The notes under the pieces were generated by a model. The model did not search any database. It saw nothing but the letters and a program-made list of their open reading frames with translations, and was not told the origin of the DNA. A DNA stretch of 64,000 bases from Vandiemenella viatica. Taxonomy: Eukaryota; Arthropoda; Insecta; Orthoptera; Morabidae. Location of the stretch: the NCBI GenBank assembly GCA_031002005.1, contig CM061920.1, positions 47,904,610 through 47,968,609 of the forward strand, in the 5' to 3' direction. Each line of letters begins with the position of its first letter. Position 1 is the first letter of the stretch. Shown piece by piece: positions 12,488 through 43,619 of the stretch. A program made the position numbers and the translations under genes.

Positions 12488-12652
12488 AGATAATGGAAAC
12501 AAAGAAACTGCCGTTGGGCACTAAGAATTAGATAGGATAGAAAAATACCCATCACTTACACAGATGAAGGCAGGAGGACGAGAAGAACACATACAAAACA
12601 CAAAAACTAACAAATTGCACAATATTTCGGCAGGCTCATACCAAATATTGTG

Positions 12653-12731
<79 letters not shown>

Positions 12732-12792
12732 GTGTTCTTCTCACCCTCCTGCCTTAATCTATGGCAAGTATTTTTCCCCTATCCTATCTAAT
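12488..12792 (-). mobile_element. Fold-back Penelope-like insertion with 14-bp target duplication
   Basis: The segment is flanked by TCATATCTACATTG (12474-12487) and TCATATCAACATTG (12793-12806), 13/14 identical. The left arm (about 12521-12600) is the reverse complement of the right arm (about 12730-12792), sharing GAAGGCAGGAGG and ATTAGATAGGATAG. The centre has GCACAATATTTCGG facing CCAAATATTGTGC, then a 74-T run. The same tail occurs at 37.5, 40.7 and 58.0 kb, and a diverged version follows a GIY-YIG remnant at 43.7 kb, which ties the family to Penelope-like elements. Confidence 0.6.
12656..12729 (+). repeat. T74 homopolymer
   Basis: Seventy-four consecutive T between the arms of the fold-back insertion. 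Length in any assembly is unreliable; it yields a meaningless poly-Phe reading frame. Confidence 0.9.
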
Positions 12793-13144
12793 TCATATCA
12801 ACATTGCAATTTCCAAACAGAAACTGTATGATGTTAATAGTAAGCAATGTACATTGGTAAAATATGTTTATACAGAATTACAGAAGATGAATTTTCTTGG
12901 CTAAGTAAGGTATGCAACTGGACAAAGAAAAGTTGCATAAAAGATTCACAAATTTTTACAATGCACTTTAATGATGAACTTCAATAATTTTATGTTACAG
13001 CAACTACAGCAATCAATTAGTATTTCTGTAAATTCTTAAGTCGTAGACTAATATTTTCTGTAGGAAATATATTAACATTCAGTAAAAGCTATTGTCATAT
13101 AGAGTTATCAAGATGCAGAGAAAAGAGTAAACTGATAGTCTTAC

Positions 13145-13273
13145 TTTTGAGGTGTCCCTTGTTCTTCTTAGTGCCAATCTTCCTATAACGGTTGTGAATG
13201 GAGCCTTCAATTTTCTCAACATGCCATCCATCAGGACAATTTGGAGGTGGAGGACATGGAATTGGTGTCACTG
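13145..13273 (-). CDS. Exon: cysteine-poor basic linker of the hemocytin-like protein
   Basis: This 129-bp exon has two bases, 42 codons and one base (phase 1 at both ends). Acceptor is gtttttctag and donor gtaagac. The translation starts VTPIPCPPPPNCPDGWHVEK and then runs into a Lys/Arg-rich segment (YRKIGTKKNKGHLK). I recognise no named domain; the CPDGW motif looks like the start of another small cysteine module. The exon is assigned to the gene because its phases and splice sites fit exactly between the LDLa exon (G|CA gives Ala) and the next (A|CT gives Thr). Confidence 0.8.
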
Positions 13274-40860: not shown

Positions 40861-41439
40861 AACCGGTGTTGGGAAAGGGGGGGGGGAGGAGAATGTTGAC
40901 CAATAACAAATGTTAATGATCAGTCAAGGTAAAATGAAATTTGTTAGGAAAAAAAAACAATAACAAATGTATAATCTGATTTGTTATAGCTTCAAATTAA
41001 TAAAACTAGTAAGATATAAACATATATCAAAAATATTTAAAAATGTTGAAAAATTCCAACAGCATCATGTGCCAGATGAAAGAAGGTTAAGGAATATAAA
41101 AATGCATAAATAAGCAAAGTTACAGTGATATAACAACAGTATAGGACTAATAAGGAATTAACAATCACTTTGATAAAAGCTTTGAACCTTAAAGCATCTT
41201 ACAAATAGTTTATTTAACACTTCAAAAATGTAACAAAAGGAGCTATTTCTGAGTTCTAAAATTATAAAATATAAAATTATGAATAAGTCTGAAAGGTTAA
41301 AAATAAGATAGTAAGAGATGAGAACAGATAGGATTCACTTTTATTTTAACACAAAGTTAAAGATGTTAAAAGTTATTAAAAACTAACTGGTACCCATGAC
41401 TTCGTTTGTGTTTGTAAGGAATTTTGATTGATAGCTACC

Positions 41440-42640
41440 AACATGCAACCACCTTGTGCACAATGGGAGACTCGACACTAATACCACACACAAATGCGAG
41501 TGATCTGTGCTGGGTATTTATGTCTGCAAAGTTAAATATAGGGACACACATGTCTTTTGTTGAAATATGAAAATACCCTTGGTCAGCCAATATCAACCTC
41601 ACAGCTACCAAAATGCAACCACCACAGTGCACAATGGGAGATGTGAGGCTAATACTACACACAAACACCAGTGATCTGTGCTTGGTAGTTGAGGCTGGAA
41701 AGTGGAATATAGGGACACACATATATATCATCAAAATATGAAAAGGCCCTTTGCCGATGGGAGACTTGAGACTACTACTACACACAAACACCAGTGGACT
41801 GCACTAGGTACTTTTGACTACAGAGAGAGATATAGGGATACACATGTTCTTGGTGAAAATATGAAATTGCCCTCTGTTGACCAATTTCAACCACCATATT
41901 TTTCGCACCCCCACAGCTACCGATGTGCAACCACCTTGCTGCATGTTGGGAGACTTGAGGCTACTACCAAACACAAACACCAGTGGACTGCGCTAGGTAG
42001 TTTTGATGCAGAGTGAAATATAGGGACACACATGTCTATTTTGATATCAGATCGACCACTTTAAACCGCCGTATCTACCACACCCCCAAAGTTACCAATA
42101 TGCGATCACCAAAGAGCACGATGGAAGACACCAGACTACTAAGGCACTCAAACGTCAGTGGTCTGTGCATGGTAGTTCTGGCTGCAAGGTAAAATACAGG
42201 GGCACATACATCTTTGGTTGAAATATAAAACCGAGCGTGGTGGTGTAACGGATAGCGTTCTGGCCTCGCATTCGGGAGGACGGCGGTTCGAATCCCCGTC
42301 CGGGCATCCAGATTTGGGTTTTCCATGGTTTCCCAAATCACTCCAGGCAAATGCTGGGATGCTTCCTTTAAAAGGCCATGGCTGAATTCCTTCCCATTCC
42401 TTGCCCCCATCCTTTCCCATCTCTAAAGACCTAGCTGTTGAGAGACGTAAAACAGTTAAAAAAAATAATTGAAATATAAAAGTGCTCCCGGTCACCACTT
42501 TCACCCATCATATCTCCAAATTCCCATGCCTACTGACATGTAAGAACCATTGTGTATGATTGAAAACTCCATGCTACTACCACACACAAACATCAGTGAT
42601 TTGTGCTAGGTAATGATGGCTGCAAAGTGAAATATGAGAG
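41440..42640. repeat. Tandem array of about six 120-190 bp units, split by a SINE
   Basis: Each unit contains versions of GCTACCAACATGCAACCACC, AATGGGAGACT, CACACAAACACCAGTG and ATATAGGGACACACATG. Start points of the last motif are near 41541, 41712, 41834, 42022 and 42199, then 42632 after the SINE. One unit is shortened by about 60 bp. Short ORFs in both directions are by-products of the repeat. Confidence 0.8.
42231..42468 (+). mobile_element. tRNA-headed SINE, full-length reference copy (238 bp)
   Basis: Flanked by identical TTGAAATATAAAA (42218-42230 and 42469-42481). The head has an A box (TGGTGTAACGG) and a perfect B box (GGTTCGAATCC). The body has GGGTTTTCCATGGTTTCCC and AAATCACTCCAGGCAAATGC, and the 3' part ends with an A-rich tail. 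It inserted in one unit of the tandem array. This copy defines the family ends used for the others. Confidence 0.9.
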
Positions 42641-43318
42641 CTGTCTTGACATAGCATAATAAAATCAGTACAGAATAAAAAAATAAAAAATAAAATAAAA
42701 TAAGGAAATTCATGTGATGATAACAAGGGCAAAAACAAGTTTAACTGATATTTAGAGATGAAAAATTTGCCCACTTCAATTAATATTTCATTTGACATAA
42801 AAGAATAGTGGCAATTTTGAGTTATGAAGGCAAAAAATAAATTTATAAGTCGTAAACAATTCAACATACAAATGTAAATTGTTTGTTTTATAATTATGAT
42901 ATTTGAGGAATATAGGAGCATAATCCATGAAACAGCAGGAATAAAAGAAAATCATTGAAATGGAATTGTGCAAAGCATAAATCAGCATTACAAGTACATT
43001 TCAAAATTAATGACTAAAAAATCAGTCATAAAATTCTTGATATGTGCATACTTTAAGGTCCAATTGTGGTGAAACAAAAAGGTATTTCATAGAAAGTGTT
43101 AAGGAAGAAAATGTTACTAAAATTAATCTTTATACATGGGAAATTTTTAGAGAGATCATATGGAGTTCAGGTTTTGGATGGATACTTGTGTGATGCCATG
43201 GCCATGACGACAAATAAAGACAAAATGACTGTAGCAAAAATTAAATAAACACTCTCTTGTAGAATCTGAAATTATTAAAATACATAAAATGATTTAAAGT
43301 ATAAGTTACTAAAATTTG
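42641..43318. other. AT-rich intron sequence
   Basis: No gene or repeat recognised apart from short AAAAT runs near 42675-42700. Confidence 0.4.
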
Positions 43319-43324
43319 TAAGAA

Positions 43325-43619
43325 AAGAAAGGGAAATTAACCCACCACATACCAAAGTGGATGGATGCGATGAGAGGGAACACTTATGCTGACAAACAAC
43401 TACACAATATTTCGGCATCTGCCTTGTTCACAAATAGAAAAATGGGCCCGTTTTTCTATTTGTGAACAAGGCAGATGCCGAAATATTGTGTAGTTGTTTG
43501 TCAGCATAAGTGTTCCCTCTCATCGCATCCATCCACTTTGGTATGTGGTGGGTTAATTTCCCTTTCTTTTCTTATTTATATCGTCTAGAAGCCGCTTCCA
43601 TTTTCCTTAGTTTCATCAT
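43325..43619. mobile_element. Near-perfect palindromic insertion with 15-bp target duplication
   Basis: TAAAATTTGTAAGAA stands at 43310-43324 and 43620-43634. The palindrome runs 43319-43574 about a GGGCCC centre (43446/43447), with one mismatched pair in about 128-bp arms. Each arm contains CACAATATTTCGGC and ATACCAAAGTGGATGG, homologous to the Penelope-like tail family. The right side continues 45 bp beyond the palindrome to a TTTCATCA end like other family ends. Short ORFs inside are mirror images and not genes. Confidence 0.75.

What the first reader, a model, noticed from the sequence alone, without database searches (positions are those of the whole stretch)
12488..43619. Five fold-back insertions share a Penelope-like signature: 14-15 bp target duplications and hairpin ends
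Insertions at 12488-12792, 27258-27421, 29866-30824, 39692-39779 and 43325-43619 are each flanked by a duplicated 14- or 15-bp target (13/14 match in the first, exact in the others), and each is built as an inverted repeat. One has a GIY-YIG endonuclease remnant; others share sequence blocks with a tail that follows a second GIY-YIG remnant at 43.7 kb. Known Penelope-like elements give variable target duplications and inverted or tandem terminal repeats. What looks new is a population of short, mostly non-coding hairpin derivatives with a near-constant duplication length, a MITE-like form of a retroelement.
Basis: partly seen in the sequence, partly recalled or inferred. Interest (0 to 1): 0.85.

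Follow-up and report, generated by a model that had tools for sequence, protein, structure and literature searches.

The report
Two-ended insertions of Penelope retrotransposons
The five hairpin-shaped insertions are shortened copies of Penelope-type jumping genes that appear to be laid down from both cut ends of the target DNA, and in the copies compared here nearly every pair of ends uses one of each of two start points.

Summary
All five insertions are real fold-backs flanked by 14-15 bp direct repeats (E1 with one mismatch). Copies fetched from the same 3.72-Gb genome show what they are: ends of Penelope-like elements (PLEs) of at least six families; one family has an 815-codon reverse-transcriptase frame and endonuclease hits in frames open for up to 828 codons. 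The hairpins are [reverse pLTR][pLTR], head to head, with a 30-45 nt "tail" normally at one end only: 35 of 39 strictly de-duplicated hairpins (47 of all 53), 15 of 15 readable long pairs, 6 of 6 E2-type hairpins; independence predicts about 49%. This fits published PLE biochemistry: both strands are nicked and extended, and reverse transcription starts at two neighbouring RNA sites whose interval is the tail. Duplications cluster at 12-17 bp, so "near-constant 14-15" is too tight. Apexes mostly differ and lengths run from 88 bp to kilobases, so most hairpins are independent products, not a MITE-like family; three clear shared apexes leave room for some re-mobilisation. The pLTRs carry hammerhead-like motifs whose core pair 3-8 is C-G, U-A/U-G, A-U or G-C in different families. 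Inverted pLTRs, tail and PLE hammerheads are known; the near-strict pairing and the A-U and G-C cores look new.

The parts
12474..12806 (.). E1 with its 14-bp target duplications (12474-12487, 12793-12806; one mismatch); subfamily B1; tail at the left end (12488 to about 12526), none at the right
   Evidence: row window 12525-12794, TN
27244..27435 (.). E2 with 14-bp duplications (27244-27257, 27422-27435); tail 27258-27287 at the left end only
   Evidence: five relatives with the same build
29852..30838 (.). E3 with 14-bp duplications (29852-29865, 30825-30838); arms 29866-30062 and 30593-30790; tail 30791-30824 at the right end only
   Evidence: long relatives
30274..30597 (-). C-terminal GIY-YIG endonuclease remnant inside E3, in two stop-free pieces (30427-30597 and 30274-30423)
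   Evidence: Pfam alone does not recognise the pieces
29911..29941 (-). hammerhead-type core with the textbook motif (CTGATGA-A-stem II-GAAACGTC) in the left arm of E3
39678..39793 (.). E4 with 14-bp duplications (39678-39691, 39780-39793); tail at the left end; the arm next to the tail lacks a stretch that L130 has
43310..43634 (.). E5 with 15-bp duplications (43310-43324, 43620-43634); arms 43319-43446/43447-43574, 99%; tail 43575-43619 at the right end only
43462..43484 (+). hammerhead-like core of E5 with G3-C8 in place of C3-G8 (the other arm carries the same on the - strand)
43715..43869 (-). single pLTR end of family F1 with textbook core CTGAGGA-A-GAGC-CAT-GCTC-GAAAATTC (core 43809-43831); 93.6% identical to 56419-56574
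44739..44933 (-). second GIY-YIG remnant, about 0.9 kb upstream of the F1 pLTR on the same strand
56409..56574 (-). second F1 pLTR end in the window
37542..37799 (+). older pLTR end of subfamily B (A3-U8 core near 37625), with a 51-nt palindrome at its 5' side; no target duplication found

Best explanation
The hairpins are two-ended, 5'-truncated insertions of endonuclease-bearing Penelope-like elements. The PLE protein nicks both strands with a 12-17 nt stagger and uses both 3' ends as primers on its pLTR RNA. One strand starts at the distal RNA site (its arm gets the tail), the other at the proximal site (no tail). The two cDNAs run inward, stop at variable points and are joined in the middle, often at self-complementary words, leaving two head-to-head arms; gap filling makes the target duplication. 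Shown here: architecture, duplications, the two alternative ends, the pairing of one tailed with one tail-less end, mostly variable apexes, and relatives with long open frames. Taken from a published in vitro system: nicking and extension of both strands and the two start sites. Inferred: that one protein dimer makes one start of each kind per insertion, and that the cDNA ends anneal at the apex.
For: Relative with an open frame: L157 codes an 815-aa stop-free frame with a Pfam RVT_1 match (2.8e-10) and, by eye, YVDD and GIYSIPCECGKVYIGQ; its 5' part runs across the hammerhead and the tail region, as described for the Anolis element PAc (PMC11167929: both strands nicked and extended, two RNA start sites, the tail lying between them). 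Head-to-head order, counted by eye: within 6 kb 22 -/+ pairs, 3 same-strand, 0 +/- among the 150 listed endonuclease hits; within 500 bp 9 -/+ and 1 +/+ among the 100 listed F1 hits, with one +/- pair at 526 bp; 8 -/+ pairs within 5 kb and no +/- pair among 44 E2 hits. One tail per hairpin: 35 of 39 strictly de-duplicated pairs (20 NT, 15 TN, 3 NN, 1 TT); 47 of all 53, or 42 of 48 after removing five clear segmental duplicates; 15 of 15 pairs with both ends readable, of 18 E3-family pairs examined; 6 of 6 E2-family hairpins; window E3, E4 and L130 by eye. Single copies carry the tail in 65 of 154, so independent choice predicts 49% one-tailed hairpins; P(at least 35 of 39) = 7.7e-8. Duplications. 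E3's two arms differ in length (about 200 and 730 nt), as two separate cDNAs would.
Against: Pfam does not call GIY-YIG in the 815-aa frame. Exceptions to the one-tail rule: L026, L036 and L072 (no tail) and L045 (two); in the full set of 53 also L037 (no tail by score, one by eye) and L009 (two tails; removed by the strict de-duplication). Loop-free palindromes in 30 of 39 could also come from self-priming, the reading favoured in PMC3846280. Most sites of families A and F1 are (TA)n tracts where duplications cannot be read. In 36 subfamily loci only 10 gave an exact 13-17 nt repeat at the ends. The PAc study reports no difference in start site between strands, which does not test pairing within one insertion. 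Families other than E3's were not linked to an RT frame here.
Confidence: 0.87

Rival explanations
1. Snap-back: a single cDNA is primed at the target, folds on itself at a palindrome and copies itself (or RT switches to an antisense transcript), giving an inverted repeat from one priming event.
For: 30 of 39 hairpins have no loop; a palindrome (GATGTGTACACATC or GATGTGGTCACATC) lies in the pLTR near several apexes; self-priming is proposed in PMC3846280.
Against: Copying the cDNA back would be expected to put the tail on both arms or on neither; most hairpins have exactly one. Unequal arms with loops over 60 nt occur in 8 of 39 and in E3.
Confidence: 0.2
2. MITE-like family: hairpins are copied as hairpins and spread on their own.
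For: Shared apexes at different targets: E4 and L130, L110 and L115, L113 and L116; L007 and L016 meet at the same native palindrome.
Against: Six E2-type hairpins have spacings of 25, 43, 55, 71, 84 and 105 nt; 39 hairpins span 122-680 nt; long pairs with open frames exist. Only two exact copies of the E4 apex exist in the genome. Recurrent joining at the same self-complementary word would also give shared apexes.
Confidence: 0.09
3. Cut-and-paste DNA transposon or foldback element with long terminal inverted repeats.
For: Inverted arms flanked by direct repeats.
Against: Ends are asymmetric (one tail), duplications vary 12-17 bp, single ends of the same kind are common (154), and the family with an open frame encodes a reverse transcriptase.
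Confidence: 0.02
4. Assembly or sequencing artefact (palindromic chimeras).
For: Hairpins are a known artefact of some libraries (general knowledge).
Against: Target duplications abut the ends, the tail rule holds, and arms have diverged (70-99% identity).
Confidence: 0.01

Closest known systems
Penelope elements of Adineta vaga (PMC3846280; passages read)
   Same: pLTRs in inverted orientation head to head, a 31-bp tail optionally on one of the inverted pLTRs, palindromes at the junction, unrelated sequences captured between solo pLTRs, short target duplications
   Different: Target duplications in the passages read are 8-10 bp or absent; here 12-17 where readable. The passages read do not say that the tail is nearly always on exactly one arm.
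PAc, Poseidon-type PLE of Anolis (PMC11167929; text parts 1 and 2 of 4 read)
   Same: Open frame starting in the pLTR at the hammerhead, two internal RT start sites with the tail between them, both strands cut and extended
   Different: In the parts read the two ends of one insertion are not paired; its natural hammerhead core is C3-G8
Hammerhead ribozymes with core variants (PMC3088659; passages read)
   Same: Covariation of core pair 3-8; natural U3-A8 reported there, such changes having been shown active in vitro
   Different: Here A3-U8 is the rule in the GAAATATTG group and G3-C8 occurs in the E5 type; activity not tested
Metazoan retrozymes (PMC7229834; passages read)
   Same: Small non-coding elements with type I hammerheads, possibly moved by PLEs
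   Different: Retrozymes are direct tandem repeats; these are head-to-head PLE ends

Membership tests
Penelope-like element (Penelope/Poseidon type) | Reverse transcriptase open frame in the family | tested here: met
   E3 family only: L157 815 aa, PF00078 2.8e-10; for A, B, F1, F2, E2, E5 no RT frame was looked for
Penelope-like element (Penelope/Poseidon type) | C-terminal GIY-YIG endonuclease | tested here: inconclusive
   Motif GIYS..VYIGQ visible in the L157 frame; Pfam gives no GIY-YIG match
Penelope-like element (Penelope/Poseidon type) | pLTRs in tandem or inverted order with an optional 30-40 nt tail | tested here: met
Penelope-like element (Penelope/Poseidon type) | Hammerhead-type motif in the pLTR | tested here: met
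   Textbook core in E3 and F1, variant cores elsewhere, by motif; no Rfam hammerhead match in the stretches scanned; cleavage not tested
Penelope-like element (Penelope/Poseidon type) | RT falls in the PLE clade of a tree | not tested
   no tree built
MITE | Copies share one internal sequence and both ends | tested here: not met
   Apex mostly varies; ends asymmetric; exceptions E4/L130, L110/L115, L113/L116
Retrozyme | Direct tandem repeats of 150-450 bp with hammerheads | tested here: not met
   Mostly head-to-head order in the listed hits

The most novel reading that the evidence does not exclude
PLE integration is a paired reaction: in each two-ended insertion one target strand is extended from the distal RNA start site and the other from the proximal one, as if the two halves of a protein dimer held the two sites of the RNA. 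Alongside, the pLTR hammerheads have exchanged their core pair 3-8 through C-G, U-A/U-G, A-U and G-C while keeping the rest of the motif, so natural hammerheads with A3-U8 and G3-C8 cores would exist in large numbers.
Probability: 0.5. Interest if true: 0.75.

Novelty: new variant of a known kind. Interest (0 to 1): 0.52.

Why it matters
How PLEs complete an insertion is an open question; the in vitro study says that steps after first-strand synthesis are yet to be validated. Fold-back copies record both ends of a single event, so they show which start site each strand used. If the one-tail rule holds genome-wide, it points to a coupled, probably dimeric, two-primer reaction and gives a direct test. 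The hammerhead core swaps would widen the known natural sequence space of this ribozyme.

Tried and rejected
Rfam scans of the whole window (gathering score) and, in E-value mode, of 48 kb, 521 bases and 221 bases of it gave no hammerhead match; one search gave one weak twister-P1 match (E 2.7), and the microRNA matches lie on the perfect E5 hairpin, all below gathering score. Pfam on EN pieces found nothing relevant; a protein search with two joined pieces found nothing. A first TSD search on pattern-centred loci did little better than its control (9 of 49 tail instances with a repeat of 11 nt or more against about 4.5), because most sites of families A and F1 are (TA)n tracts and element lengths were unknown. 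A complexity filter wrongly dropped long arms (E3, E5); corrected. The automatic tail calls contain mis-paired families (nine NN rows); replaced. The de-duplication removed 14 of 53 pairs, of which five (L008, L015, L055, L059, L085) are clear segmental duplicates and the others share repeats in their flanks; it also removed L009, a rule breaker, so one search gives the tally without it. The apex comparison uses an ungapped axis and is unreliable where its score is low (for example L120, L121, L129, window E2). MITE, DNA transposon, retrozyme and artefact were considered and rejected as above. Papers on PLE hammerheads (PMC4209133, PMC5785218) are not held, so earlier reports of A3-U8 or G3-C8 cores cannot be excluded.
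Full report
WHAT WAS CHECKED. The five insertions were read from the window. Each has a direct repeat at its ends: 14 (13/14), 14, 14, 14 and 15 bp. Each contains an inverted repeat. Direct repeats of 14 nt or more at 60-1000 nt spacing number 18 in the window against a mean of 0.3 in ten first-order Markov copies. 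When the 149 direct repeats of 12-29 nt in the window and 47 loci are ranked by how well the enclosed sequence folds back, E5, E3 and E2 are at ranks 3, 4 and 6 and E4 at rank 9. E1 needs one mismatch and was recovered.

THE GENOME. I fetched 48 loci around it, two of them overlapping, 20 more, 40 loci of a younger subfamily, 20 of family F1, one E4 relative, the ends of 18 long pairs plus one open-frame copy of the E3 family and five E2 relatives.

ANATOMY. In sense orientation an element end reads: variable 5' cut, in many copies near a palindrome (GATGTGTACACATC or GATGTGGTCACATC), then a hammerhead-like core, then about 100 nt of pLTR, then one of two ends. End N stops at the pLTR border (TTAGTTTTAT in A, TATCTTATT in B, GTTCAATA in F1, GAAACTTTCATTGA in E3). 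End T runs 30-45 nt further. Both ends occur in single copies too: 65 T and 89 N of 154.

HAIRPINS. Two such ends face outward, head to head. Order is strongly biased, by eye: 22 -/+, 3 same-strand, 0 +/- pairs within 6 kb among the 150 listed endonuclease hits; 9 -/+ and 1 +/+ within 500 bp among 100 listed F1 hits, plus one +/- pair at 526 bp; 8 -/+ within 5 kb and no +/- among 44 E2 hits.

ONE TAIL PER HAIRPIN. Of 39 strictly de-duplicated hairpins 20 are N/T, 15 T/N, 3 N/N (L026, L036, L072) and 1 T/T (L045). Without de-duplication 47 of 53 have one tail, with 4 N/N (L037 added; by eye it has one tail) and 2 T/T (L009 added); after removal of five clear segmental duplicates 42 of 48. Of 18 long E3-family pairs, 15 have both ends readable and all 15 have one tail; one pair (L147/L148) is internal on both sides and two have one end missing. 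All six E2-family hairpins, the window's included, have one; so do window E3, E4 and L130 by eye. With the tail in 42% of single copies, independent choice predicts 49%; 35 or more of 39 has probability 7.7e-8.

TARGET DUPLICATIONS. In 36 non-duplicate loci of the young subfamilies the longest exact repeat was 13 (4 loci), 14 (2), 15 (1), 16 (2) or 17 nt (1), against 0.43 expected for 13-17 with swapped flanks (the swapped set also gives a few longer matches, 18-34 nt, about 0.6 per 36, from shared repeats); a 30-nt repeat in L077 is pLTR homology, and 25 loci gave 0-11 nt. L099 has a 15-nt repeat that the filter removed. In the 18 long pairs, exact repeats abut the ends in 12: 12 nt (5), 13 (5), 14 (1), 15 (1). 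E2 family: 16, 15, 12, 13, 14 and none in a (TA)n site. L034 has 15, L043 has 13 and 14. Lengths may be off by one to three where element and target share bases. So the spread is 12-17, centred on 13-14. Most sites of families A and F1 are (TA)n tracts, where nothing can be measured.

APEX AND LENGTH. Border-to-border lengths of the 39 hairpins run from 122 to 680 nt; 30 have no loop, 1 a loop of 40 nt, 8 a loop over 60 nt. The six E2-type hairpins have spacings of 25, 43, 55, 71, 84 and 105 nt. Long pairs reach kilobases with open frames. This looks like a continuum of 5' truncations, not a fixed small element. Against that: E4 and L130 share an apex at different targets, L110 and L115 share one, L113 and L116 share one, and L007 and L016 meet at the same native palindrome. 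Repeated joining at the same self-complementary word would explain these, but copying of ready-made hairpins is not excluded. E4's arm next to its tail lacks a stretch that L130 has.

THE AUTONOMOUS ELEMENT. E3's endonuclease piece has 150 scored matches (20,975 first-look candidates), the 149 outside the window at 95-98% identity, some in frames open for 826-828 codons. L157 has an 815-aa frame open to the edge of the fetched stretch, with RVT_1 (2.8e-10); GIYSIPCECGKVYIGQ and YVDD are seen by eye, while Pfam gives no GIY-YIG match. The frame runs through the pLTR, across the hammerhead and the tail region, as reported for PAc.

MECHANISM. PMC11167929 (parts 1 and 2 of its text read) reports that the PAc protein cuts and extends both strands, that reverse transcription starts at two neighbouring RNA sites, and that the genomic tail is the stretch between them. 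Put together with the present counts: both nicked strands are primed, one from each site; the cDNAs run inward and are joined; the stagger becomes the duplication. The pairing within single insertions is the new point. Why it should be so is inference: a dimer holding both RNA sites would do it. Self-priming alone would be expected to copy the tail onto both arms or neither.

NOVELTY. Inverted pLTRs, the one-sided tail and PLE hammerheads are known. New, as far as the held library shows, are the near-strict pairing of tailed with tail-less ends and the A-U and G-C cores.

Noticed in passing
window 43462-43484, 37625; L001-L129: Hammerhead-like motifs whose core pair 3-8 is A-U, G-C or U-A/U-G instead of C-G, in families of hundreds of copies.
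   Followed up: partly
window 30055-30139 and 30152-30237: Two repeats of about 86 nt (87% identical) inside E3 that resemble the 3' half of 5S rRNA on the - strand (recalled; no Rfam match at E<=1); possibly an internal Pol III box.
   Followed up: partly
L007/L008, L015/L016, L018/L019, L032/L033, L055/L056, L059/L060, L080/L081, L085/L086, L092/L093, L097/L098: Pairs of what looks like the same insertion with similar flanks about 25-225 kb apart on one contig: local segmental duplications, or unresolved haplotypes in the assembly.
   Followed up: no
L110-L121, L047, L057, L068: Most fetched copies of families F1 and A lie in (TA)n tracts, while B, E2 and E3 families are mostly in ordinary sequence: different target preference.
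   Followed up: no
contigs C7, C4537, C7729: Three contigs have nearly the same length (388,957,648; 388,957,591; 388,957,675), which suggests that chromosomes were cut at a size limit.
   Followed up: no
window 10230-10655, 45791-46504, 52115-52564: Open frames that look like decayed non-LTR reverse transcriptase fragments (by eye).
   Followed up: no
L175, L176, window 27258-27421: The E2 family keeps an extra G in its hammerhead-like core (CTGGAAGA instead of CTGANGA) in the three copies long enough to show it.
   Followed up: no
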